Position numbers and translations under genes: made by a program
Shown here: positions 12,579 to 24,512 of the stretch, one piece after another
How positions within the stretch are numbered: position 1 is the stretch's first letter
How the letters are laid out: each line of letters opens with the position of its first letter
The notes under the pieces: generated by a model
Seen by the model: the letters and a program-made list of their open reading frames with translations, nothing else
Databases searched by the model: none
Told to the model about the DNA's origin: nothing
Source: Catenovulum agarivorans DS-2
GTDB lineage: Bacteria > Pseudomonadota > Gammaproteobacteria > Enterobacterales > Alteromonadaceae
Length of the DNA: 39,770 nt
Direction: 5' to 3'
Assembly: GCF_000568405.1 (NCBI RefSeq)
Contig: NZ_ARZY01000041.1
Coordinates: 1-39,770, forward strand

Positions 12579-14027
12579 TTGAGCAGCTTCAAATTAAACA
12601 TGTGTTTGTTATCTTGCCTTAGCAGTATGTTGTTGGCTTGTGGGTCAAGCAATGTTCAGCATGAAAATAGTAATAGCACTTCGAATGAACAAAATACGGG
12701 GGTGCATTGTAGTCGTTTAATTGAATTGCCTATTGTTGCTGCATCTGACGATGGCAGTCACGATGACTATGAACCAAATAAAAGCATTGATGGTGATTTA
12801 GCAAGCGCTTCTCGTTGGTCTTCGGATGGGGTGGGCAAATACATCATTTTCGATTTAGCTGAAGTTGTCAAAATTAAGCAGCTACAAGTTTTGTGGTTTG
12901 AAGGGGATAGCCGAAATTATTATTTTGATATTGATATCTCACACGATAAAGCACAATGGACTTCCGTGTTAGTCAGCGGTCAATCTAGTGGCTCGCAAGC
13001 TGGGTATGAGTTAATAGATATTGATGATACAGATGGGCGCTATGTTCGGATTACAGGCCAAGGCAATTCAGTTGATGCTTGGAATAGCATTGTCGAAAGC
13101 CAAATTTGGGGGTGTTTAGAAGGTGATAAAACACCGACGTCAGAACCAACACCTGTACCAACTCCAGAATTTAATTTAGATGCCAATTTGCCCCCATCAG
13201 GTAATTTTGATTTGCAAGATTGGACCTTAGGCGTACCAGTTGATAACAACAATGACGGTAAGTCTGACACAATTAAAGAAAATGAACTCGCTAATGGATA
13301 TGTGCATTCTGACTGGTTTTATACTGCGGCAGATGGTGGCATGGTTTTTAAAGCACCAATAGACGCGCCTAAAACGTCAACTAACACCAGTTACACCCGT
13401 TCTGAGTTACGAGAAATGTTACGCCGTGGCGACAGCAGTATTAAAACTCAAGGGATCAACCAAAACAACTGGATATTTTCTAGCTATTCACCTGCTGAAC
13501 AAGCAAAAGCTGGTGGGGTTGATGGTGAGCTAACCGCAACATTGAAAGTTGACCATGTCACAACAACTGGCTCTAGCGGCCAAGTTGGCCGCGTAATTGT
13601 TGGGCAAATTCATGCAAAAGACGATGAACCAGCACGCTTGTATTATCGCTTGTTACCAGGCCACAGCAAGGGGTCAATTTATCTAGCGCACGAGCCAACT
13701 AATGGTAACAGTGAGCAATGGTACAACATGATTGGCACGCGCTCTAACTCTGCAGCCGAACCTGCTGACGGCATTGCTTTAGGAGAGGTATTTAGTTACT
13801 CGATTAAAGTAACTGGACATATGCTGACAGTAACCATATATCGAGATGGCAAAGCAGATGTTGTCCAAACTGTCGATATGAGCGATAGCGGTTTTCACAC
13901 AGGAACCGACCAATATATGTATTTTAAAGCGGGCGTCTACAACCAAAACAATAGTGGCGACCCGAATGATTTTGTGCAGGCGACATTTTATCGGTTGCAC
14001 AATACTCATAGTGGTTACGATCACTAG
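12579..14027 (+). CDS. PL7 alginate lyase, lipoprotein with CBM32-like domain
   Basis: A 482-residue lipoprotein. The start is TTG, supported by AAGAGG seven bases upstream and by the signal peptide, whose lipobox LLAC puts the lipidated Cys at residue 21 (+2 Gly, so outer-membrane sorting is expected). Residues ~45-178 are an F5/8-type (CBM32-like) domain, followed by a Thr/Pro linker, then the PL7 alginate lyase domain (~195-480). The three PL7 motifs are seen: RSELREML, GQIH and YFKAGVYNQ, carrying the catalytic Arg, Gln, His and Tyr. QIH is usually associated with activity on guluronate-containing blocks. It would cut alginate by beta-elimination at the cell surface. A second PL7 gene follows after 53 bases. 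Confidence 0.93.
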   Translation: MSSFKLNMCLLSCLSSMLLACGSSNVQHENSNSTSNEQNTGVHCSRLIELPIVAASDDGSHDDYEPNKSIDGDLASASRWSSDGVGKYIIFDLAEVVKIKQLQVLWFEGDSRNYYFDIDISHDKAQWTSVLVSGQSSGSQAGYELIDIDDTDGRYVRITGQGNSVDAWNSIVESQIWGCLEGDKTPTSEPTPVPTPEFNLDANLPPSGNFDLQDWTLGVPVDNNNDGKSDTIKENELANGYVHSDWFYTAADGGMVFKAPIDAPKTSTNTSYTRSELREMLRRGDSSIKTQGINQNNWIFSSYSPAEQAKAGGVDGELTATLKVDHVTTTGSSGQVGRVIVGQIHAKDDEPARLYYRLLPGHSKGSIYLAHEPTNGNSEQWYNMIGTRSNSAAEPADGIALGEVFSYSIKVTGHMLTVTIYRDGKADVVQTVDMSDSGFHTGTDQYMYFKAGVYNQNNSGDPNDFVQATFYRLHNTHSGYDH

Positions 14028-14080
14028 CTAGTTGAAATACTAGCAATTGATAAACACTCACACACAACAAAGGAAATAAC

Positions 14081-15751
14081 ATGAAAAAAGCGAATAAAAA
14101 GGTCGTTTTGTCGGCATTGTATTTATCTTTAGCTGCAGCTGGGTTTAGCGCTAATACACACGCAGCAACGCCGTCTTCGGTAACAGATAATGGTAATGAT
14201 GGCAACGTAGCGGCTAATACAATTGATGATGACCCAACATTTTCTACCCGTTGGTCGGCAAATGGCAATGATGGCAGCCAATGGGTTCGATATGATTTTG
14301 GGTCAGCGGTTAGCTTATCTGCGTTAAAAATTGCCTTTTACAAAGGGGATCAGCGTCAAACGTATTTCAGAATTCAAAGTTCAACCAATGGTTCAAGTTG
14401 GTCGACTGTCGTTGACAAAAGCAGTGCGGGTAGTTCAGGTTCGACTACGGGTTTAGAAACTTTCAACTTCCCAGCAAGTGTTTCAGCCCGGTATTTCCGT
14501 ATTCAAGGTTTTGGTAACACTTCAAATACTTGGAACAGTATTACTGATGTTGAGTTTGTTGATGGCGGTTCGACAGGTGGCGGAACAACCAATGTTCCTG
14601 GCTTAATTCAAGCTGAAGATTACAACGATTATTCCGACACAACCTCTGGCAACACAGGTGGACAATATCGTACTGATGATGTTGATGTGCAAGCAACTTC
14701 AGATACTGGTGGCGGTTACAATGTCGGTTGGATTAAAGCGGGCGAGTGGTTGGAATACCCAATTTCAGTTTCAAGTGCAGGCACATATACAGCGGACATT
14801 CGTGTTGCGTCCTCTCGATCTACTGGCGCGTTTAATGTATTGGTAGATGGTAGCACTAAAGACAGTGTTGCTGTAGGTCACACTGGAGGCTGGCAAAGCT
14901 GGACAACTAAAAGCGTAAATTTAGGTAACTTGTCGGCTGGCAATCACACTATTCGAATTAACGTAACAGGGAGCGATTTCAACATAAATTGGATTGATGT
15001 TAAAAAACAAGCTTCTAGCTCAACTGGTTTTGATTGGGATGGCTGGAAAGTAACCTTGCCGGTAAATGGTGATACTTGGTACAACAATGGCAACACCAGT
15101 AGCGCTGCAGAAATTCAACCTGCTGGCTGTACCGATGATATATTCGATGACAACTTAAATATTGATTATTTCTGGTCTGATTCAGAAGGTATTCATTTTA
15201 GAGTGCCAATGAATCTTGATGGTAAAACGCCAAATACCTCGTATATCCGTTCTGAATTGCGTGAGTTGTATAACTGGACACCATGTGGCTCAACAAGTGA
15301 GGCTAACTGGTCGTACGGCGGTAATCACACGTTAACCGCTAAAGTACGTATTGATGATTACAACCCAAGTGGTACCAAAGTTGTAGTTGGCCAAATTCAT
15401 GGTCACGACATTAAATACGCGACAATTAAACTACATTGGGAAGGGGACAGTAAGCCGGTACGTGTAATTTACAATGCCTCGCCTAATAGCTCGACGCCAA
15501 ATAATGTCTATTTAGGATATGTAGACTCGTCTGATTTCTGGGAATATTCCATCAAAATGACTAATTCTGGTATTGAATTGTCAGCTGGTGGGGTAACTGA
15601 AACCATTACTTTTGGTAATGAGCTAAGCAATGATTGGAAAGATGCTGATTTCTACTTTAAAGCTGGTTTGTACCCTCAACAAAAACCAGATTCAAGCTCG
15701 TCAGAAGTATATGAAGCAACCTTTAAAGATGTGGTTGTAACGCACGATTAA
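14081..15751 (+). CDS. Secreted PL7 alginate lyase with CBM32- and CBM6-like domains
   Basis: A 556-residue exported enzyme. A type I signal peptide (about residues 1-29, ending THAA) is followed by an F5/8/CBM32-like domain (~30-163) homologous to that of the preceding lyase, a Gly/Thr linker, a CBM6-like domain (~172-308; IQAEDYNDY, GYNVGWIKAGEWLEY, NINWIDVKK) and the PL7 domain (~312-556). Catalytic motifs RSELREL, GQIHGH and YFKAGLYPQ are present. CBM6 binds various polysaccharides; the ligand here is unknown. A good ribosome site (AAAGGAAATAAC then ATG) and the short spacing suggest an operon with the upstream lyase. The strong terminator follows it. Confidence 0.93.
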   Translation: MKKANKKVVLSALYLSLAAAGFSANTHAATPSSVTDNGNDGNVAANTIDDDPTFSTRWSANGNDGSQWVRYDFGSAVSLSALKIAFYKGDQRQTYFRIQSSTNGSSWSTVVDKSSAGSSGSTTGLETFNFPASVSARYFRIQGFGNTSNTWNSITDVEFVDGGSTGGGTTNVPGLIQAEDYNDYSDTTSGNTGGQYRTDDVDVQATSDTGGGYNVGWIKAGEWLEYPISVSSAGTYTADIRVASSRSTGAFNVLVDGSTKDSVAVGHTGGWQSWTTKSVNLGNLSAGNHTIRINVTGSDFNINWIDVKKQASSSTGFDWDGWKVTLPVNGDTWYNNGNTSSAAEIQPAGCTDDIFDDNLNIDYFWSDSEGIHFRVPMNLDGKTPNTSYIRSELRELYNWTPCGSTSEANWSYGGNHTLTAKVRIDDYNPSGTKVVVGQIHGHDIKYATIKLHWEGDSKPVRVIYNASPNSSTPNNVYLGYVDSSDFWEYSIKMTNSGIELSAGGVTETITFGNELSNDWKDADFYFKAGLYPQQKPDSSSSEVYEATFKDVVVTHD

Positions 15752-15882: not shown

Positions 15883-16803
15883 CTAAGCTTTTGGATTAAT
15901 AAAGCTTAGAATCTGCTCGGTGGTTAAGTTTGGCGTGGCGCCTGAATTTTGGGCAATTAGTGCGCCTACAGCACAGGCAAAGTCGACTGCGTATTGTGGG
16001 TTGTCCTGTACGCAAAGTTGATAGAGCAATGCACCTAAAAAGCCGTCACCTGCACCAACTGTGTCGACAACCTTTGCTTTAAAACCTGAATTGTAATAGT
16101 TACAGCCGTCGATTTTTAATATTGCTCCATGGCTACCTTTGGTTACACATAGGTTTTGTGTGTTGGTTTGCTCGGCAATAAATTCTAAGCATTGTTCTAA
16201 AGAGTTATAAACACAACCCATTTCTTCAGCGATTAAAAACAGCTCATCGTCATTTAATTTTATAAAGTCAGCATGCTGCATCCACTCAACAACTTGGCTG
16301 ATTTTATAGTGTGGTTCGCGTAAATTGACGTCGAATACCTTAAATTTGGCATGAGGGAGCAACGCACTTAACGTATCAAACGACACAGCAGAGCGGCCAA
16401 CCAAACTACCAAAAATAAATAGGTCCGATTCTTTAACCGCATTCAATGCTTCGTTGGTCAGTTGAATATTATCCCATGCACTGTCTTCAACAATGGTATA
16501 GGTTGCACTCCCACGGCTATTCAACTCCACCAAAACTTCACTGGTTGCTTTATCATCGTTGACCTGAATAAGCCCTGTATTTAATTTGTGTTGTTTAAGT
16601 AGGCTCAAAATCGAGCCTCCTAGAGGATCATTGCCAACGCTGCTAATCAGCTGGCTGTTTAATCCAAGAGATTTTAAGCGCCAGCACACGTTTAGTGGCG
16701 CACCGCCTAATCGCTTGTCTTGACCAAAACAATCCCATAAGACCTCTCCAAAGCAGGTAATCAATATTTCATCTGCAGGTGTAGTGATAAGTTGCTTGGT
16801 CAT
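15883..16803 (-). CDS. Fructokinase, PfkB (ribokinase) family
   Basis: A 306-residue cytoplasmic sugar kinase. Family signatures are the N-terminal CFGEVLWDCFG and LGGAPLNVCWRLKSLG, and the C-terminal DTVGAGDGFLGALL with catalytic D253. It sits four bases after mannitol 2-dehydrogenase, whose product is fructose, so it most likely makes fructose-6-phosphate from ATP and fructose. This is the last gene of the HAD phosphatase, permease, dehydrogenase, kinase operon. A ribokinase-like kinase for another sugar is possible from sequence alone, but the context favours fructose. Confidence 0.9.
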   Translation of the reverse strand: MTKQLITTPADEILITCFGEVLWDCFGQDKRLGGAPLNVCWRLKSLGLNSQLISSVGNDPLGGSILSLLKQHKLNTGLIQVNDDKATSEVLVELNSRGSATYTIVEDSAWDNIQLTNEALNAVKESDLFIFGSLVGRSAVSFDTLSALLPHAKFKVFDVNLREPHYKISQVVEWMQHADFIKLNDDELFLIAEEMGCVYNSLEQCLEFIAEQTNTQNLCVTKGSHGAILKIDGCNYYNSGFKAKVVDTVGAGDGFLGALLYQLCVQDNPQYAVDFACAVGALIAQNSGATPNLTTEQILSFINPKA

Positions 16804-16807
16804 CGTA

Positions 16808-18325
16808 TTACTCCATGTGATTCAGTTGGTTTTGCATCAAGGCTTTAACGCTTGCTTTAGCTGTGTATACGTCATGTACTGCTTGGATGTATGCATTGAC
16901 GAAGTGATCATTTTTTACAATATCACCAAATACACTGGTCAACTTTAAAAATGACAACACGTCTGCATTCGTGCCCCTAGCTGCAAGTGTTAATTGTGCA
17001 GTCATTTCGTCTTGTATGTTAATTTTATTGCCGAGTTTATCGACTTGTTTGTCACAGGTATAACACCAAGCCGCAATCACTAATGCTGCTAGTGTTACAT
17101 TCTGCTTATTCTGGCTGTTTTCGACTGCTGCTTCCAAGATAAACTTCGGAATTTTGGCAGAGCTTTCCGAACAAATTCGGCCAACACTGTCTTGGATATT
17201 TGGGTTGGCAAAACGTGCTAAAACGGTTTTTTTATATTCGGTTAAATCAATTCCCGGCACAGGCTCTAAAGTTGCTGTGGCTTCTTTGTCTAGGTAAGCT
17301 AATAAAAATTGGCTAAAGGTTGCATCAGCGACACAATCATTTATTGTCGCAAAACCCTCTAATGCACCCAGTATTCCTAGCACGGAGTGGCCAGCGTTAA
17401 GTAAACGCAATTTCATTTTTTCGTATGGACTTACATTATCAACAAATTGTGCGCCGACTAAATCCCAATTGGGTCGACCTTGGGCAAACTTGTCTTCAAT
17501 AACCCATTGCATAAAGGGTTCACAAGTAATTGGCCATTCATCAGCTACGCCTAGTTGTTCAACGTATTGAATGTCTTCACCCGTTGTTTGTGGGGTGATG
17601 CGGTCAACCATTGAATTTGGAAAAGTAACATGCTCGGTAACCCATTGAGCTAACTCAGCATCTAACTTTTGTATAAAGCTAAGAAGCATTTTTTTTGCAA
17701 CATCACCATTATGTTGCACATTGTCGCAGGATAAAATAGTCACACCTGGCAAGTTATTGTCGCGACGACGCTTTAAGCCTGCCGCTAGATAACCAAAAGC
17801 GGTTACAGGATCTGCTGGATGGGCTAAATCATGCTGCACGTCTGGATTTTCAAAATTAAACGTACCATCAGCTGGGTTAACATTGTAACCACCTTCAGTA
17901 ATGGTAAGTGAAATGATTTTAGTTTGCGCAGCAGCCAGTTTATCAATCGCTTGTTGTTTGTTGCCAGGTGCTAAAATAAATTCAACTAAAGAGCCTATAA
18001 TTTGGTGTTCCACTTTACCATCTGGGTGGCGCACCAATAAGGTATATAAGCCATCTTGTTGATTGAGTACTTGGCTTAAATGTCTGTTTGCTTCAAATAA
18101 ACCAATACCGCAGATACCCCACTGATTATTGTTCGCCAATTTAAGTAGCTCATTGCAATATACAGCTTGGTGAGCACGGTGGAAGCCGCCCACACCAATG
18201 TGGACGATTCCAGCTTCAACTGCGCTGCGGTCATAGTTGGGTGTGTCTACAAAGCTAGGCACTTGTGCCAAGGTTTGATTGCTTAAGGTTAAAGCACTTT
18301 CATTTGGTAATTTATTAACGTTCAT
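16808..18325 (-). CDS. Mannitol 2-dehydrogenase (long-chain polyol dehydrogenase)
   Basis: A 505-residue NAD(P)-dependent enzyme of the mannitol dehydrogenase family, oxidising D-mannitol to D-fructose. The N-terminal nucleotide-binding motif is GVGGFHRAHQAVY. Further family signatures are LSCDNVQHNG, PNSMVDRITP and KLRLLNAGHS. In the last, K305, N310 and H313 have the spacing of the catalytic Lys, Asn and His of the Pseudomonas enzyme. Arabinitol or fructuronate dehydrogenases are related, but length and the fructokinase neighbour favour mannitol. Mannitol is a main storage polyol of brown algae, which also explains the alginate lyases nearby. 33 bases separate it from the permease gene. Confidence 0.92.
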   Translation of the reverse strand: MNVNKLPNESALTLSNQTLAQVPSFVDTPNYDRSAVEAGIVHIGVGGFHRAHQAVYCNELLKLANNNQWGICGIGLFEANRHLSQVLNQQDGLYTLLVRHPDGKVEHQIIGSLVEFILAPGNKQQAIDKLAAAQTKIISLTITEGGYNVNPADGTFNFENPDVQHDLAHPADPVTAFGYLAAGLKRRRDNNLPGVTILSCDNVQHNGDVAKKMLLSFIQKLDAELAQWVTEHVTFPNSMVDRITPQTTGEDIQYVEQLGVADEWPITCEPFMQWVIEDKFAQGRPNWDLVGAQFVDNVSPYEKMKLRLLNAGHSVLGILGALEGFATINDCVADATFSQFLLAYLDKEATATLEPVPGIDLTEYKKTVLARFANPNIQDSVGRICSESSAKIPKFILEAAVENSQNKQNVTLAALVIAAWCYTCDKQVDKLGNKINIQDEMTAQLTLAARGTNADVLSFLKLTSVFGDIVKNDHFVNAYIQAVHDVYTAKASVKALMQNQLNHME

Positions 18326-18358: not shown

Positions 18359-20074
18359 TTAGGCGTTCAGGCTTTTTTGGCGCTTGAGTGACCAATACGC
18401 GGTAACAAAATAAACAACCGTGCCTATGATGCAGTAGAGCTCAAACTGAGTTTTATTTTCCTGGTAGCTAGCGATATCAGGACTGGCAAACATCACTAGA
18501 CAAGCAAAGTAACTAATGATAGCTAATGCTACAGCTGAGGTGTAATTTAGTACTTTGCTGAACATTGATGTATCTACAACATATTTACTTTCAGTTTCAG
18601 CTTGTTTTTGCTGGAATTTTTCAATTTTGCTTTGCAGCGCTGCTTCAGCTTGTTGCTGCTCATGATAATCTTTATCTGCACCATATTTTTTAGCCAATAA
18701 GGTGTAAGTGACTATGGTGAAAATCCAAGTTGGAATAAACAAGTAGTAGAATGACATAACATCTAGTGCATTTAAGCCAAAACCAAAGGCTAGGGCTAAT
18801 CCCCAACTAGCGATTGCTGGTGTGCTATGAGTGAGTTGTTGATACTTAGCCCAATAGCGGGTGAAGCCTAGTTTTGGAAACAATACGTGTTCAGCAAATA
18901 CAATACCGCCAACAGGCACAACTAATAGACCAGCGTAGGTTAGCAGCGGTAACATTTGCGTAAATACAAATGGGAAACATGCAATTATCACAGTGGCAAT
19001 ACCAACTACAAATGTGGTTTTTTCTCTAGAATGATTGGTAAATATTGACTGAGCTGCTAAGCCTGCACGGTATAGGTTTGCATTTGCAGTTGTCCAACCC
19101 GCAATAATGATAATTACAAAACCGGTAATACCAAGTGCGTGATAAGCAACATCACCTGGGTCTAGGTGTGAAATACTGGTTTGTAACAAAACCGCGGTAC
19201 CAGCGCCCATAATACCAGCTGCGATCCACGCCAAATAATGACCAAAAAACATACCAACACCTGACAACATGCCGTAACGTTTCTTTTTAGCAAAGCGGAA
19301 GATTGCCATATCAATTAAACCAAAGTGGGTAATTGAGTTAGCAGCCCAAGCGAAACCGATAACTTCAAGTAAACCAATGCCTGGTTCGCCATGACTATTG
19401 ATGCCTGTCCATATTGAGGCGTCGCCAATCGCTAAGAAATCTTGCCAACTGGTTACTTCGGTTTGACCTAACACGTGATTAGAAAGGGCTGGGAAAAGTG
19501 CAAAAGAACCGGCAATAAAAATCACAAATAACCAAGGAGCACAAATTTTTGAGAAATCAGCAACTGTTGAAAAACCAAACATGGCGACTAATACAACAAT
19601 GGAACCCACTGCTAGCACTATGGCGACAAACCACATACTTGATGGATACCAGTTTAATTGTGCAGGAATGTCGAATAGAAACCGCACTGCAGTGGAAGAG
19701 ACGGTTATCATCGCGGCGGAAATGACGGTAAAGATGACCACATTGGCCCAATTGTACAGCTTGGTCATTGAATCGCCGGCAATCTTATTCAGGTAGTTAT
19801 ATAAACTCAAGCGAGTTTCTACGGCAATTGGTGCGGTTAACAATGCCCAAGATAACATTGCTAAAATGTTACCGATAAATAGGCCAAGAATAATATCTAT
19901 TGTTGAAGCACCTAATGCAACAAAGGTCGCTCCAATAACAAATTCGGTGGCGGCGACATGTTCACCAGCGTATAAACCTGCGAAATGTTTCCAGCCATGT
20001 AGCTTATGTTTTGCAACTGGGAGTTGCTCTTCGTTAACTTGCTCAAGTGATTGAGTATTTGGGTTTCCAGTCAT
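18359..20074 (-). CDS. NCS1-family (cytosine/purine permease-like) transporter in a mannitol operon
   Basis: A 571-residue inner-membrane permease with about 12 hydrophobic segments. Family features are the N-terminal GEHVAATEFVIGATFVALGAS and the motif AGWTTANANLYRAGLA, typical of nucleobase:cation symporter-1 proteins. A hydrophilic, Gln/Lys-rich loop (about residues 450-485) and further helices end the protein. NCS1 members usually move purines, pyrimidines or allantoin with H+ or Na+. Here the operon holds only polyol genes and no other sugar transporter, so it may carry mannitol (inference). The ATG at 20074 has AAAGGTGA upstream; a GTG at 20083 lies inside that ribosome site and is not preferred. 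It follows the HAD phosphatase gene by about 24 bases. Confidence 0.9.
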   Translation of the reverse strand: MTGNPNTQSLEQVNEEQLPVAKHKLHGWKHFAGLYAGEHVAATEFVIGATFVALGASTIDIILGLFIGNILAMLSWALLTAPIAVETRLSLYNYLNKIAGDSMTKLYNWANVVIFTVISAAMITVSSTAVRFLFDIPAQLNWYPSSMWFVAIVLAVGSIVVLVAMFGFSTVADFSKICAPWLFVIFIAGSFALFPALSNHVLGQTEVTSWQDFLAIGDASIWTGINSHGEPGIGLLEVIGFAWAANSITHFGLIDMAIFRFAKKKRYGMLSGVGMFFGHYLAWIAAGIMGAGTAVLLQTSISHLDPGDVAYHALGITGFVIIIIAGWTTANANLYRAGLAAQSIFTNHSREKTTFVVGIATVIIACFPFVFTQMLPLLTYAGLLVVPVGGIVFAEHVLFPKLGFTRYWAKYQQLTHSTPAIASWGLALAFGFGLNALDVMSFYYLFIPTWIFTIVTYTLLAKKYGADKDYHEQQQAEAALQSKIEKFQQKQAETESKYVVDTSMFSKVLNYTSAVALAIISYFACLVMFASPDIASYQENKTQFELYCIIGTVVYFVTAYWSLKRQKSLNA

Positions 20075-20098
20075 GGTATTCACCTTTGTCTGTACTAT

Positions 20099-20806
20099 CT
20101 AGTTTAGGTTTAGCAGTTTTTCTGCATTATTTTGTTTTTTAAAAAGTGGTTGATACATCTGTTGTAAACTGTGCCAGTTGTTAAGTTGACGCACGCTGCC
20201 ATCAAGGATAATTTCTGGGGCAGAAGGGCCAGTTAAGTGCTGCCCACCTTGATAATGCAGGGCTTGCATGTTGGCCGCTGATGCTGCTGCCAAACCTGCT
20301 GTGCTGTCTTCTATTACCAAGCATTTATCTGCAGGTACTTGCATTTGCTTTGCCGCAAATAAAAATAAATCTGGAGCGGGTTTACCGTGTTTAACTTGTG
20401 AGGCTGTATATACATTTTTAGCAAAAGCATCGGTTAGCCCAACCAATTTTAAACAATAAGCTGCACGCAAAGGCGCACTGCTAGTCGCAATGCAGTAATT
20501 TACAGACAGTTTGTTAAGCATCTGCTTAAAACCAACCGTTGTTTTTAATTCAGTTGCAAACTGGTTGAATAAGGCTTCGCGGTATTCGTATTCAAATGCG
20601 TTGTTAAGTGACACGCCAAATACTCGATAGACACTGTCTTTCATGCTATCAAAGCTGCGGCCTAAGTAATGTTCCAATACGTAGGCTACATCTATTTCAA
20701 TTCCAATTAGTTTAAATTGTTCGACCAACACAGTTGCGCTGATAATCTCGCTATCAACCACCACGCCATCAAAATCAAAAATTATTAGCTGTATATCTTT
20801 TGGCAT
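20099..20806 (-). CDS. HAD-family sugar phosphatase (beta-phosphoglucomutase-like), operon leader
   Basis: A 235-residue cytoplasmic HAD hydrolase. Motif I is FDFDGVVVDSE (nucleophile D11, acid/base D13), motif II is IATSS, the Lys motif is KHGKPAPD, and motif IV is VIEDS. A helical cap follows motif I. The subfamily contains small-sugar phosphatases of the YieH/YfbT sort. In this operon it may hydrolyse a stray phosphate such as mannitol-1-phosphate or fructose-1-phosphate (inference). A paralogue with the same motifs lies at 22093-22773. The ATG at 20806 with GAGA upstream is preferred over the adjoining GTG. It is the first gene of the mannitol operon. Confidence 0.88.
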   Translation of the reverse strand: MPKDIQLIIFDFDGVVVDSEIISATVLVEQFKLIGIEIDVAYVLEHYLGRSFDSMKDSVYRVFGVSLNNAFEYEYREALFNQFATELKTTVGFKQMLNKLSVNYCIATSSAPLRAAYCLKLVGLTDAFAKNVYTASQVKHGKPAPDLFLFAAKQMQVPADKCLVIEDSTAGLAAASAANMQALHYQGGQHLTGPSAPEIILDGSVRQLNNWHSLQQMYQPLFKKQNNAEKLLNLN

Positions 20807-20846
20807 CACATTCTCACAAAATTAAACTGGGCAATTGCTCTCAATG

Positions 20847-20881
20847 TGGTCATATTCTCAGATTTGTTGATAATTTGTCAA
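20847..20881 (-). promoter_or_regulatory. Paired operator-like motifs and promoter of the mannitol operon
   Basis: TGGTCATATTCTCA (20847-20860) and TGATAATTTGTCA (20868-20880) are two copies of a motif found upstream of the other units of this locus, 21 bases apart. On the minus strand, a perfect -35 box TTGACA (complement of 20876-20881) overlaps the second motif and the -10 region falls on the first. Binding of a regulator here would block the promoter. The rest of the 313-base gap (20810-21122) is AT-rich, with only the hairpin noted at 21069. Confidence 0.6.
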
Positions 20882-21068
20882 ATACAATGTGAATATTTTT
20901 TAAACTTTTTTACACATATGTCCGTTGAGTTAATCAAAAATGTTGATAAATAAGGTAAAAAAAATCTAGAGAAAAATAAAAAGAGAGCGCTGTTTATGAA
21001 CAGAAAGGATGTATCAGCGAGTAATTGAGTTGTCGAGGACTTAAATATTGAATTGAGCTTTAGCTCTT

Positions 21069-21103
21069 GGTTTGGGCGTATGCTTGTGTTTTTAGCCCAA
21101 ACC
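21069..21103 (-). terminator. Hairpin after the SorC regulator gene
   Basis: GGTTTGGGC (21069-21077) and GCCCAAACC (21095-21103) form a perfect 9-bp stem just downstream of the SorC stop. There is no clear T-run after it on the minus strand, so it may be a weak or Rho-assisted terminator. Confidence 0.4.
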
Positions 21104-21122
21104 GGCTACTTGAAGATTGTCG

Positions 21123-22082
21123 TTAGCAAGATGCTAATAATTGTGTTGCGGTAAATTCATTGGTGACTAAAGAGTTGATTAAACGTCCATTTAGCGCCGC
21201 TTTAATTGCGGTGATTTTTTTCGACCCAGCTGCAATACCATATACGGGGTTGTCGGTTTGTGGGTACAAAGGAGAACTCACCACGCGTTCATTAATACTA
21301 TTTTGTAATATTTGTCCCTTTTCATTGTACAGCCAGCTGATGATCTCTCCTGCTGCGCCATCATCAATGGCCTGTTGTAGTTCTTGTTGTTGAATGAACC
21401 CATCGATTAACAAGGGAGGGTTATCGGAAATTTGCCCAATGCCAACAAAAGTCGCATCTGCTTGTTTGATTAACTCAAAAATACTTTTGACCGAAAATAA
21501 ACTGTGCAAAATGAGCTTCTCTTGTTCTGAGCTGGCAATAACAGGCAGTGGCATTGGGTAATGTTTCGCTTTAACTCGGTTTGCCATGCTAACAACAATA
21601 TCAAAGTCGGACGCTGAGCCATCTCGCATCATATTGCCGAGTAAAGACACTATTTTATGTTGTGGGCAATGCATAGATGGTAGTTCATCAACCATGCCTT
21701 TTAATGCCCGACCTGTCCCGAAAGCCAGGGTGCAGGGCGTATTTGATTTTAAATAGCGTTCTAGGATCTTGGCCGAGGCTTGAGCCAAACCAATTCCATC
21801 GTCTGGCGCTGCTGGATCGCTCGGTACTATCTCACATTCAATTAAGTTGTATTTCTGCTTTAGCTGCTCGGCTAATTCCATACATGCGCTAATAGGGTGA
21901 TCTAACCTAACTTGTATTAATCCTTCGTTGACCGCTAGTGCAACTAACCTTTGGGCGGATTGACGTGACACTTCTAGCTTTTGCGCTATTTCGTCTTGGG
22001 TATTTTTGCCAACGTAATAAAGCCATGCAGCTCTGGCTGCGTCTTCAAGTCGTTTTAATTCTGAAGTTGATTTAGTTGTCAT
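21123..22082 (-). CDS. SorC-family sugar-sensing transcriptional regulator
   Basis: A 319-residue regulator. An N-terminal helix-turn-helix lies around residues 27-55 (GKNTQDEIAQKLEVSRQSAQ), and the C-terminal ~260 residues are the sugar-phosphate-binding SorC domain (LAFGTGRALKGMVDELP, IVSLLGNM, FVGIGQI, VYGIAAGSKK). SorC proteins sense phosphorylated sugars or polyols and control nearby catabolic genes. It is 10 bases after the second HAD phosphatase gene, so the two form an operon, and AGGAAG precedes the ATG. It is the natural candidate for binding the repeated TGGTCAT-type motifs of the locus. Whether it represses or activates cannot be seen. Confidence 0.92.
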   Translation of the reverse strand: MTTKSTSELKRLEDAARAAWLYYVGKNTQDEIAQKLEVSRQSAQRLVALAVNEGLIQVRLDHPISACMELAEQLKQKYNLIECEIVPSDPAAPDDGIGLAQASAKILERYLKSNTPCTLAFGTGRALKGMVDELPSMHCPQHKIVSLLGNMMRDGSASDFDIVVSMANRVKAKHYPMPLPVIASSEQEKLILHSLFSVKSIFELIKQADATFVGIGQISDNPPLLIDGFIQQQELQQAIDDGAAGEIISWLYNEKGQILQNSINERVVSSPLYPQTDNPVYGIAAGSKKITAIKAALNGRLINSLVTNEFTATQLLASC

Positions 22083-22092
22083 AGTCTTCCTA

Positions 22093-22773
22093 CTATTGCT
22101 TAAATTCTTGGGTGAATAACTGGGGATACATGTCGATAAATTCCCGCCAGCAGCTTATTTGAGTGATTTTATTGTCAGCCTGCTGTGTTTTTTGGTTTAT
22201 TAAATGCCCACCACCACGATAATTTATAACTTGCATATTTGCGGCTTGCCCTGCTTGTACGCCAGGTTGACTATCTTCGATGACCATACATAGATCAGCT
22301 GCAACGCCCATCTGCTTTGCGGCATGTAAAAATAAGTCCGGCGCTGGTTTGCCATGCTCAACTTCACTTGCGGTAAAGACGTTTCTTTTAAATTGCTCTG
22401 CGAGACCAATTTGCAGTAATGAGCCTTGCACTCTCTTTGGACTACTACTGGTTGCGATACAATATTGACAATTCAGTTGAGCTAGCATGGTTGAAAATCC
22501 AGGCGTTTCAGCGAGTTGTGTCTGGAATTCTGCTAATAACTTTGTACGGTACTCTTGTTCGAAGTTATCGGGTAGTTGTACTGAAAAGTTATCTTCAATG
22601 TGTTGATGTACAGTCGGGAAACTGCGACCTAAAAAATGCTTCATTACATATTGGCGGTCTACTTTAACACCGTACAGACAAAGATGAGCGATTAACACGC
22701 GTGCACTGATAATCTCGCTGTCTATTACCACACCATCACAGTCAAAAATAACTAATTCAATCTTGTCTTGCAT
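22093..22773 (-). CDS. HAD-family sugar phosphatase, paralogue of the 20099 gene
   Basis: A 226-residue HAD hydrolase with motif I FDCDGVVIDSE (D11, D13), IATSS, KPAPD and VIEDS. It clearly aligns with the phosphatase at 20099-20806 along its length. GAGG precedes the ATG. It leads the operon with the SorC regulator, while its paralogue leads the mannitol operon. The two may act on different sugar phosphates, or one may remove the ligand that SorC senses, but neither can be shown from sequence. Confidence 0.87.
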   Translation of the reverse strand: MQDKIELVIFDCDGVVIDSEIISARVLIAHLCLYGVKVDRQYVMKHFLGRSFPTVHQHIEDNFSVQLPDNFEQEYRTKLLAEFQTQLAETPGFSTMLAQLNCQYCIATSSSPKRVQGSLLQIGLAEQFKRNVFTASEVEHGKPAPDLFLHAAKQMGVAADLCMVIEDSQPGVQAGQAANMQVINYRGGGHLINQKTQQADNKITQISCWREFIDMYPQLFTQEFKQ

Positions 22774-22907
22774 TCACAACCTCATCAGCCACATGAGCAT
22801 AAGCCCTTTATATGGGCATGTTCTTACGATGAGTCGCTGATGTCAATTTAAATCCTTTTTTGCCGGGCAACAGCGAGATCAACTGTCAGCGTGAAAACTT
22901 GATGAAT

Positions 22908-22940
22908 TGGTCATTTGCCATTTTTGTGGTCATTTGTTCT
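22908..22940. promoter_or_regulatory. Paired operator-like motifs between HAD/SorC and porin genes
   Basis: TGGTCATTTGCCA (22908-22920) and TGGTCATTTGTTCT (22927-22940) are direct repeats 19 bases apart. A perfect minus-strand -35 box TTGACA lies at the complement of 22841-22846, without a clear -10, and may serve the HAD-SorC operon. The intergenic region (22774-23162) also holds the next motif pair at 23059. Confidence 0.6.
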
Positions 22941-23058
22941 GTTTTGGTTTTATAAATAATGTGTGTTTTAAGTTTATGATTTTTATTGAAATGTGTTTAT
23001 TTTGTTAAAGTTTGTGCTGCTTTTTTGTTTGAATTAGGTTGATCAATTAAATAAAATA

Positions 23059-23091
23059 TGGTCATATGCCCATATGGTGAGCAAATGATTA
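23059..23091. promoter_or_regulatory. Operator-like motifs upstream of the porin gene
   Basis: TGGTCATATGCCCA (23059-23072) is a near-palindrome centred on CATATG. An inverted copy follows: the reverse complement of 23078-23091 is TAATCATTTGCTCA. The centres are about 19 bases apart. A TTGATC box near 23039-23044 would put the -10 region on the first motif. Confidence 0.6.
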
Positions 23092-23162: not shown

Positions 23163-24512
23163 ATGCAAAACGATACGACTTTGAGTTTGAATAAGCCGCT
23201 TAATAAAGCCACAAAACTGCAACTAGGTATGTTGCTCGCGACATCTATAGCGTCGCTTGCCCCCGCATATTCGCATGCAGATGATTCAAATACCTTTTTC
23301 GACGGACGCATGCAGGTTAACTTTTTGGCGATGCAGAATTATCAGGCTATTCAGGCAAAGACCGGCGCGTATCGCCCAGCAGATGAAGTGCAAGCAGATG
23401 GATTTGGCCGCTTGAGAGTTAATTTACAATTAAAGTTTAATATTACCGAGCATATTGTTGCCGATGTCGATATTGCCGAAGAACCAAACGACTTTGGCAA
23501 CAATGGGGATCGTGATTTCTCGTTTCACCAAGATTTTGCTGGCATCGAGTTTGACGTACTCGGGTTAACAAACAGGGTTAAAAATGGCAAGGATTTAACC
23601 CTGCGAATAGGTAATATTGGCGCTTCACCTTTTCAGTTTAAAGGCTTTCAGGACGGCGCAGATAACCAAGGCAATGCGTTGATTGGTAATGGCATTACCG
23701 ATTACGCAACTGCTGAAAATGGCATTCAGCTTAGCTATAGTCAAACATACACTGGCGGGGTAATTCGTGCTTACAATCTTGCTGGACATATGACGACTTC
23801 AAGTTTTGGTGAAGCTTTTCAGCAAGGGCGGGGCTACAACTATAGATTGCAGGGTAGTTTAGAATTCGATGGTGGTTTTAAAACAGGTGTTAGCTTATTT
23901 AAAGCAAATCAAGATGGTCAACTTAACTTTGTTGATGGAATTGCCAGCTTAGATGGCGTGACGACAACTAACTATCGTTTTGGTGATGGCGAAAACTATA
24001 ATTTTTCAGCGTCTGCATCAAGTGAGCGAGATACACATGTCGGGGCTTTGCCGGGCATTAATCAATCGATTGTGCAACTGAATTTAGCCTATCAACCGAC
24101 TGAACAAACAAGCTTAATTTTTATGTTGGGCCGCTCCGCTGACGATTACACATTTGCCGATACCGCAGGAAATGCAGTCGCTGGTATTACGTATTCTGGA
24201 TCAGCGGAAGATTCAAACCAAGTTATAAAAGGCGATAGCTCTGTTGATTATTGGGTGGTGGAAGCACAACAATATTTAGTGCCGAAAAAATTCTACTTAG
24301 CTGCGAGATATTCAGCCGCTGAGAATACCTCTGATTTAATTGAGCAAGTCGATAATGAAGTAACGCGTATACAAGTTGCTGCAGGCTACTGGATTAATCA
24401 TAGAACATTATGGAAGTTTGAATATGTAGACCAAGAAGAAGGCGTTAATTCTGGTGGACAAATTGGCCAAGGATTTAAAGGGTTTACGTCAGAACTTTCG
24501 GTTAAGTTTTAG
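23163..24512 (+). CDS. Outer-membrane porin-like beta-barrel protein of the mannitol locus
   Basis: A 449-residue exported protein. A long signal peptide ends near residue 40 (AYSHADD) and is followed by alternating beta-strand segments and a C-terminal Phe (ELSVKF), as in outer-membrane barrels. AGAGGA lies seven bases before the ATG. I do not recognise a named porin family with certainty. The operator-like motifs upstream match those of the mannitol operon, so it is likely a substrate-specific channel for the polyol or a related small sugar (inference). Confidence 0.8.
   Translation: MQNDTTLSLNKPLNKATKLQLGMLLATSIASLAPAYSHADDSNTFFDGRMQVNFLAMQNYQAIQAKTGAYRPADEVQADGFGRLRVNLQLKFNITEHIVADVDIAEEPNDFGNNGDRDFSFHQDFAGIEFDVLGLTNRVKNGKDLTLRIGNIGASPFQFKGFQDGADNQGNALIGNGITDYATAENGIQLSYSQTYTGGVIRAYNLAGHMTTSSFGEAFQQGRGYNYRLQGSLEFDGGFKTGVSLFKANQDGQLNFVDGIASLDGVTTTNYRFGDGENYNFSASASSERDTHVGALPGINQSIVQLNLAYQPTEQTSLIFMLGRSADDYTFADTAGNAVAGITYSGSAEDSNQVIKGDSSVDYWVVEAQQYLVPKKFYLAARYSAAENTSDLIEQVDNEVTRIQVAAGYWINHRTLWKFEYVDQEEGVNSGGQIGQGFKGFTSELSVKF

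What the first reader, a model, noticed from the sequence alone, without database searches (positions are those of the whole stretch)
20847..23091. A repeated paired operator motif links porin, permease, dehydrogenase and regulator into one polyol regulon
A motif close to TGGTCATWTGYYCA occurs six times in the three control regions of the mannitol locus: 20847, 20868, 22908, 22927, 23059 and (inverted) 23078. Each region holds two copies about 19-21 bases apart, two turns of the helix, as expected for cooperative binding. In the mannitol operon promoter they overlap the -35 and -10 boxes. A SorC-family regulator is encoded in the middle. I saw the motif nowhere else in the window. The SorC binding is inferred.
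Basis: partly seen in the sequence, partly recalled or inferred. Interest (0 to 1): 0.72.

Follow-up and report, generated by a model that had tools for sequence, protein, structure and literature searches.

The report
Mannitol repressor's paired DNA sites
In a bacterium that also carries alginate lyases, a sugar-sensing repressor probably switches a mannitol-use gene set on and off by sitting on pairs of mirror-image DNA sites built into the promoters; this is a well-supported new example of a known kind of switch.

Summary
The core idea holds; details need correcting. Relatives show the real element: two 14-bp palindromes (TGRGCATATGCYCA) 19 bp apart. A model trained only on relatives finds four places in the 4.57-Mb genome up to E=10, all in this locus: 20828, 21054, 22794, 23059. 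Pair 22908/22927 is weak but correctly spaced. In 277 genomes outside the training set, the element is in 33 of 48 with this SorC protein and 1 of 229 without; 45 of 46 such sites lie near the permease or sorC genes. Site 1 usually contains the -10 box, 17-18 bp after a -35 box, so repression by a SorC tetramer is the best reading. Binding is not shown. A mannitol pathway with its own regulator (mtlRII/MtlR2) was already predicted in Shewanella frigidimarina. New member of a known kind.

The parts
20828..20860 (-). Operator pair of the HADa-permease-mannitol dehydrogenase-kinase operon: site 1 TGAGAATATGACCA (20860-20847), site 2 AGAGCAATTGCCCA (20841-20828), 19 bp apart
   Evidence: relatives-only matrix score 30.2, top pair in the window; relatives-only model E=0.008 in own genome
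20852..20881 (-).
   Evidence: sequence; -35 at the same or adjacent offset in relatives
22794..22826 (-).
   Evidence: score 29.0; model E=0.022; pairs before HAD-sorC in relatives
22818..22846 (-). Predicted promoter of HADb-sorC: -35 TTGACA (22846-22841), 17 bp, -10 GAACAT (22823-22818)
   Evidence: sequence; offset as in relatives
23059..23091 (+). Operator pair of the porin gene: TGGTCATATGCCCA and TGAGCAAATGATTA
   Evidence: score 28.5; model E=0.005; a pair before the porin gene in the nearest relative G193 too (L119:7391)
23039..23067 (+). Predicted weak promoter of the porin gene: TTGATC (23039-23044), 17 bp, TCATAT (23062-23067)
   Evidence: sequence; -35 matches 4 of 6
21054..21086 (.). 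Fourth pair, between the sorC 3' end and HADa, with no -35 box at the usual offset: possible auxiliary operator
   Evidence: score 23.9; model E=0.038; no -35 box
22908..22940 (.).
   Evidence: score 14.1 at 19 bp; about 0.001 expected by chance in 390 bp; not found by the model; no third pair between porin and HADb in G193; flanks printed
21123..22082 (-). SorC-family regulator (319 aa), SorC/DeoR-LsrR type
   Evidence: Pfam Sugar-bind 9.4e-63; DeoR and LsrR NCBIfam models match below their cut-offs; PDB LsrR, DeoR, SorC
22093..22773 (-). HAD-family sugar phosphatase-like protein HADb, first gene of the sorC operon
   Evidence: Pfam, NCBIfam below cut-offs of the named phosphatases
20099..20809 (-). 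HAD-family paralogue HADa, first gene of the catabolic operon
   Evidence: Pfam, NCBIfam below cut-offs of the named phosphatases
18359..20083 (-). Membrane protein with many predicted long helices, presumed polyol permease; no Pfam, NCBIfam or PDB sequence match
   Evidence: low-confidence model; homologues at 64% identity or more in 57 genomes, all with this SorC
16808..18325 (-). Mannitol 2-dehydrogenase family enzyme
   Evidence: Pfam Mannitol_dh; closest solved structure 1lj8, mannitol dehydrogenase, E=1.8e-124
15883..16803 (-). PfkB-family sugar kinase, probable fructokinase
   Evidence: Pfam 5.6e-45; best NCBIfam model fructokinase, below its cut-off
23163..24512 (+).
   Evidence: homologues with a pair within 500 bp upstream in 10 relative loci

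Best explanation
The locus is a mannitol (polyol) utilisation regulon under a SorC-family repressor encoded in its middle. The operator is a 33-bp element: two 14-bp palindromes (TGRGCATATGCYCA) exactly 19 bp apart, fitting one SorC tetramer (dimer of dimers). At three promoters (HADb-sorC, HADa-permease-dehydrogenase-kinase, porin) site 1 contains the -10 hexamer, 17-18 bp after a -35 box, and site 2 would cover roughly +4 to +17 if transcription starts about 7 bp after the -10 box. The bound tetramer would therefore block RNA polymerase and repress all three units, its own gene included, until a pathway sugar phosphate (fructose-6-phosphate or a hexitol phosphate, not tested) binds and releases it. 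Shown here: the element, its spacing, its restriction to this locus in the genome, its co-occurrence with SorC, its targets in relatives and the promoter geometry. Inferred: binding by SorC, repression, inducer, and mannitol as substrate.
For: Relatives-only model finds just four places in 4.57 Mb at E<=10, all within 2.3 kb of each other in this locus. A scan that allowed spacings 17-24 in 21 SorC-selected loci plus the window gave 24 of 24 pairs scoring >=25/28 at exactly 19 bp. In 277 genomes not used in training: element in 33 of 48 SorC+ and 1 of 229 SorC- genomes at E<=0.01. 45 of 46 such sites lie <1.3 kb upstream of the permease gene (24) or within 9 kb of sorC (21); 16 of them are on another contig than sorC (12) or at least 674 kb from it (4), so the link is not mere neighbourhood. 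36 of 49 pairs have a -35 box (>=5/6) 20 or 21 bp before site 1, against 0.8% per position in a control at other offsets. Site 1 position 5 is A in 33 of 36 where site 2 has C in 36 of 36: the palindrome yields to the -10 box. Residues SRQSAQR, at the start of the predicted third helix, are invariant in 14 sequences (window and 13 homologues of 52-83% identity). SorC-family DeoR and CggR bind as tetramers to paired half-operators; repeats are 20 bp (CggR) and 22 bp (DeoR) apart in the sequences printed in PMC11229326 (passages; measured).
Against: 15 of 48 held-out SorC+ genomes have no match at E<=0.01 (10 at E<=0.1, 7 of these in one genus, g25), so the motif drifts or the search misses weak sites (only 18 candidates per genome were scored). 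12 of 328 SorC- genomes match at E<=0.1, fewer than the roughly 33 expected by chance at that cut-off. Genomes are related, so counts are not independent. Loci L120-L131, L137 and L138 were chosen because the model matched them, so their 19-bp spacing is no independent evidence. One element (L123) precedes a LysR-family gene with no known link. 13 of 49 pairs have no good -35 box; the porin -35 box is poor (TTGATC), and sites 22813 and 23078 are poor palindromes. No binding, expression or growth data; Shewanella frigidimarina with the predicted pathway did not grow on mannitol (PMC2996990, passage).
Confidence: 0.87

Rival explanations
1. The pairs are bound by another transcription factor encoded elsewhere, and SorC is only a neighbour.
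For: No binding data; SorC and its targets are often neighbours, so proximity alone could mislead.
Against: Element and SorC co-occur across genomes (33 of 48 against 1 of 229), also when the targets are on other contigs or at least 674 kb away (16 of 46 sites). Paired palindromes fit the known SorC tetramer. The putative recognition helix start is invariant in 14 sequences.
Confidence: 0.06
2. SorC acts as an activator, or as both activator and repressor, at these sites rather than as a simple repressor.
For: Some SorC-family proteins have been described as activators (recalled, no call). Pair 21054 has no -35 box at the usual place, nor does 22908 show one.
Against: At the promoters, site 1 contains the -10 box and site 2 lies just downstream of it, where a bound protein would block polymerase.
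Confidence: 0.1
3. The repeats are promoter-like sequence without a regulator: conserved -35/-10 boxes plus chance palindromes.
For: Site 1 overlaps the -10 box, and the regions are A+T-rich.
Against: Site 2 lies outside the promoter boxes and is just as conserved (G4 and C5 in 36 of 36); spacing is fixed at 19 bp; the element is nearly absent from genomes without SorC.
Confidence: 0.02
4. The regulated substrate is another polyol (for example D-arabinitol or sorbitol) rather than mannitol.
For: The dehydrogenase also matches fructuronate reductase and arabinitol dehydrogenase models below their cut-offs; 10 of 67 SorC+ genomes have no permease at 64% identity or more, and the SorC locus of G193 has an ABC transporter.
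Against: Closest solved relative is a mannitol dehydrogenase (1lj8, E=1.8e-124), with a fructokinase-like kinase beside it; alginate lyase genes next door suggest a brown-algal diet, in which mannitol is common (established knowledge).
Confidence: 0.18

Closest known systems
MtlR2 / mtlRII mannitol regulon of Shewanella frigidimarina (PMC2996990 and PMC3223726; table rows and passages seen)
   Same: Mannitol pathway predicted in one genome with five genes, among them newly assigned mtlRII (regulation), mtlP (transport), mtlZII (enzyme) and mtlX (auxiliary); predicted DNA sites and logos are said to be in its Figure 3. The Shewanella electrodiphila locus found here (L051) also has five genes: HAD, SorC, permease, dehydrogenase, kinase.
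   Different: The passages seen do not state the regulator's family or motif (they say that pathways not under LacI-family proteins are under GntR and DeoR families); the figure and supplementary files were not seen, and no S. frigidimarina sequence was compared. Identity is likely but not proven. Porin control, the fixed 19-bp pairing and the promoter overlap did not appear in those passages.
DeoR of Bacillus subtilis (SorC/DeoR subfamily), structure 8r7y
   Same: Homologous along nearly the whole protein; repressor tetramer on two half-operators overlapping a promoter (PMC11229326, passages).
   Different: Different operator sequence (TTGAACA type) and wider repeat distance (22 bp); different regulated pathway.
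CggR of Bacillus subtilis
   Same: Two palindromic half-operators bound by one tetramer; repeats 20 bp apart.
   Different: Winged HTH subfamily; its operator lies downstream of the start (+32 to +77) and acts on glycolysis genes.
LsrR of Escherichia coli and SorC of Klebsiella pneumoniae
   Same: Closest solved full-length relatives of this protein together with DeoR (4go1/4l5i, 2w48).
   Different: About 25-29% identity in the fold search; they control other genes, and their operator sequences were not compared here.
D-arabinitol regulator of Klebsiella pneumoniae (DalR, name recalled; a paper on these genes is in the reference list of PMC11229326)
   Same: Recalled as a SorC-family regulator of a polyol operon whose dehydrogenase belongs to the same broad enzyme family.
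   Different: Not compared by sequence here.

Membership tests
SorC-family transcriptional regulator | C-terminal SorC sugar-binding domain (Pfam PF04198) | tested here: met
   9.4e-63, residues 63-317
SorC-family transcriptional regulator | N-terminal helix-turn-helix of the short DeoR/LsrR type | tested here: met
   Match to DeoR DNA-binding domain chain 7bhy and to full-length LsrR and DeoR; predicted model matches 4go1, 4l5i, 8r7y, 2w48
SorC-family transcriptional regulator | Binds paired half-operators as a tetramer | tested here: inconclusive
   Paired palindromes at fixed 19 bp found in sequence; oligomer state and binding not tested
SorC-family transcriptional regulator | Released by a phosphorylated sugar | not testable with these tools
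   Needs a binding assay
MtlR2 (mtlRII) mannitol regulon of Shewanella | Five genes with one regulator, one transporter, a new enzyme and an auxiliary gene | tested here: inconclusive
   Roles fit L051 and, with a second HAD gene and a porin added, the window against the table row of PMC2996990; no S. frigidimarina sequence compared
MtlR2 (mtlRII) mannitol regulon of Shewanella | Same regulator family and same DNA motif | not tested
   Neither was stated in the passages seen; the figure logo and supplementary files were not seen
DeoR (NCBIfam NF053881) or LsrR (NF011947) equivalog | Score above the curated cut-off | tested here: not met
   155.9 of 420 bits and 128.6 of 486 bits: homologue, not the same regulator

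The most novel reading that the evidence does not exclude
The operator is fused with the promoter in a fixed design: the palindrome half nearest the -35 box gives up one conserved base (C to A at position 5) so that the same bases serve as -10 box and repressor site, while the two promoter-free pairs (21054 and 22908) act as auxiliary operators that loop the three promoters of the locus together. The locus would then be a multi-operator switch, not three independent ones.
Probability: 0.2. Interest if true: 0.45.

Novelty: new member of a known kind. Interest (0 to 1): 0.3.

Why it matters
It gives a precise, testable operator (two 14-bp palindromes 19 bp apart) for a SorC-family regulator present in 67 of the 395 family genomes examined, and predicts its targets even when they lie far from the regulator gene. 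It ties an unnamed membrane protein family (no Pfam, NCBIfam or PDB sequence match) and a porin to polyol uptake, which would matter for how such bacteria use brown-algal carbon. The family architecture itself is known.

Tried and rejected
Naming the permease family: no match in Pfam, NCBIfam or PDB sequences, and the predicted model was too poor (mean pLDDT 55) for a fold search, which I did not run; 'NCS' in my script labels is recalled, not shown. Paper searches for a SorC regulator of mannitol gave no listing that I took to be direct (listings seen, and only in this library); the Shewanella precedent came from PMC3223726 (listed) and PMC2996990 (fetched by a DOI that I recalled). PMC5343134 gave one passage on mannitol in the HexR regulon, not used. 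Genomes that hold the permease without SorC, wanted as a negative control, did not exist in the set: all 57 genomes with a permease at 64% identity or more have this SorC. The own-genome paralogue at 45% (C11:2643-4262) has no model match near it. A second A+T-rich element before the -35 boxes was tested after the fact and left as a side note. Check that the two training loci from named records (L051, L052) do not recur among the held-out loci read: no nucleotide match.
Full report
WHAT IS THERE. The window is one whole contig (C41) of a 4.57-Mb, 143-contig genome. It belongs to the same genus as handle G050, whose contig C1 has the same length as the Gayadomonas joobiniege pG7 record, 769,523 bases. 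The locus reads: kinase (15883-16803), mannitol dehydrogenase family (16808-18325), membrane protein (18359-20083), HADa (20099-20809), SorC regulator (21123-22082), HADb (22093-22773), all on the minus strand, then the porin on the plus strand (23163-24512). Two alginate lyase genes precede it.

CHECK OF THE OBSERVATION. The six sequences exist, but the 14-mer as written is not specific. A scan of 21 relative loci plus the window that allowed spacings of 17 to 24 bp and scored only a consensus gave 49 pairs against 10.2 in shuffles; all 24 pairs scoring 25 or more of 28 had a spacing of exactly 19 bp. Of the 21 loci, L061, L068 and L069 had no pair at that score. I wrote that consensus after seeing the first loci, so the score threshold is not blind; the spacing was not imposed.

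HELD-OUT TEST ON THE WINDOW. A matrix from 37 sites in relatives only, made symmetric, ranks 23059, 22794, 20847, 20828 and 21054 as the five best of all positions in the window. The four best pairs at any spacing from 14 to 30 are 20828, 22794, 23059 and 21054, all at 19 bp, with scores of 30.2, 29.0, 28.5 and 23.9. A 33-position sequence model from 20 relative pairs, both strands, searched in the own genome with a cut-off of E=10, returned eight rows that are these four places and nothing else; the tool scored the best 150 of 1679 first-look candidates. The pair 22908/22927 scores only 14.1 and is not found by the model, but is the only further pair at 19 bp in the window with that score; about 0.001 are expected in 390 bp from the rate at other spacings.

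CO-OCCURRENCE. In 395 family genomes the regulator (50% identity or more) is in 67, and 49 of these have a model match at E<=0.01, against 1 of 328 others. Four genomes with weaker SorC homologues only (25-34%) were counted as without. The first 118 genomes supplied all training sites except two from named records (L051, L052), so the fair count is the 277 genomes outside them: 33 of 48 against 1 of 229 at E<=0.01, and 38 of 48 against 9 of 229 at E<=0.1. Relatedness makes Fisher values too optimistic. Of the 48, 15 lack a match at E<=0.01; of the 10 that also lack one at E<=0.1, seven are in genus g25.

TARGETS. All 46 held-out sites at E<=0.01 listed were compared with gene positions: 24 lie less than 1.3 kb upstream of the permease gene, 21 lie within 9 kb of sorC, one (G300, no SorC) lies at neither. 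For the 21, the gene downstream was read only in the loci. Sixteen of the permease sites are on a different contig from sorC (12) or at least 674 kb away on the same one (4), so the regulon seems to work in trans. Stretches read around model matches away from sorC, from both genome sets and none of them training sites, show the pair before permease-dehydrogenase, HAD-permease or porin genes (L120-L122, L124-L130, and L137); exceptions are L123 (a LysR-family gene) and L131 and L138 from SorC-negative genomes. In the nearest relative (G193, SorC 83% identical) the porin gene is followed by ABC-transporter genes and stands opposite HADb-sorC, with a pair before each, and HAD-permease lies 979 kb away with its own pair.

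PROMOTER GEOMETRY. Of 49 pairs in the loci read, 46 lie within 500 bp of a regulon gene start. A TTGACA box (5 of 6 or better) stands 20 or 21 bp before site 1 in 36 of 49 (30 and 6; offsets 19-22 and both strands were tried), against 0.8% per position in a control over offsets 25-60 (28 of 3528). This puts the -10 hexamer at positions 4-9 of site 1: GAATAT in 17, GATTAT in 11 of 36. Site 1 has A at position 5 in 33 of 36, where site 2 has C in 36 of 36. In the window: TTGACA-18-GAATAT (HADa), TTGACA-17-GAACAT (HADb), TTGATC-17-TCATAT (porin; too weak to be among the 36).

THE REGULATOR. Sugar-binding domain at 9.4e-63; closest solved proteins LsrR, DeoR and SorC by sequence and by predicted fold. 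The stretch SRQSAQR is invariant in 14 sequences, window included. PMC11229326 (passages) reports that DeoR and CggR bind DNA as a dimer of dimers on two half-operators; the printed operators have repeats 20 bp (CggR) and 22 bp (DeoR) apart. A 19-bp pair fits that design.

WHAT IS KNOWN. PMC2996990 (table rows, figure legends and passages) predicts a five-gene mannitol pathway in one Shewanella genome, with mtlRII (regulation), mtlP (transport), mtlZII (enzyme) and mtlX (auxiliary) newly assigned; PMC3223726 (table row) lists MtlR2 in S. frigidimarina only. The Shewanella electrodiphila locus (L051) has five matching roles and the same 19-bp pair over a TTGACA-17-GAATAT promoter. I think these are the same regulator, but the text seen does not name its family. 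The first paper also reports that S. frigidimarina did not grow on mannitol.

VERDICT. It works like, and by sequence belongs to, the SorC family; the system is a new member of a known kind.

Noticed in passing
18359-20083: The presumed permease has no Pfam match at E<=10, no PDB sequence match at E<=1 and no NCBIfam match at E<=0.001, though homologues at 64% identity or more are in 57 genomes, all with this SorC; a paralogue at 45% is in the same genome (C11:2643-4262). It may be an undescribed polyol transporter family.
   Followed up: partly
20099-20809 and 22093-22773: Two HAD phosphatase paralogues head the two minus-strand operons, and 20 of the 21 loci have a HAD homologue close to sorC; it may destroy a phosphorylated inducer or clear a hexitol phosphate.
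   Followed up: no
L055:10454-10505, L057:10541-10592, L059:10768-10819: Three palindromes in a row at 19-bp steps instead of two, as if a further dimer could be added.
   Followed up: no
upstream of the -35 boxes in 39 pairs: An A+T-rich element resembling TTTGTTAACAAA stands about 15-27 bp before many -35 boxes (23 of 39 at 9 of 12 or better anywhere in 60 bp, 5.3 expected in shuffles); pattern chosen after seeing the data. Could be an UP element or a second regulator.
   Followed up: partly
L123:3984-4016 (G117): A good operator pair stands before a LysR-family regulator gene, a possible extra regulon member.
   Followed up: partly
12579-15751: Two alginate lyases (PF08787) with carbohydrate-binding or F5/8-type domains next to the mannitol locus, consistent with a brown-algal diet; no model match there.
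   Followed up: partly
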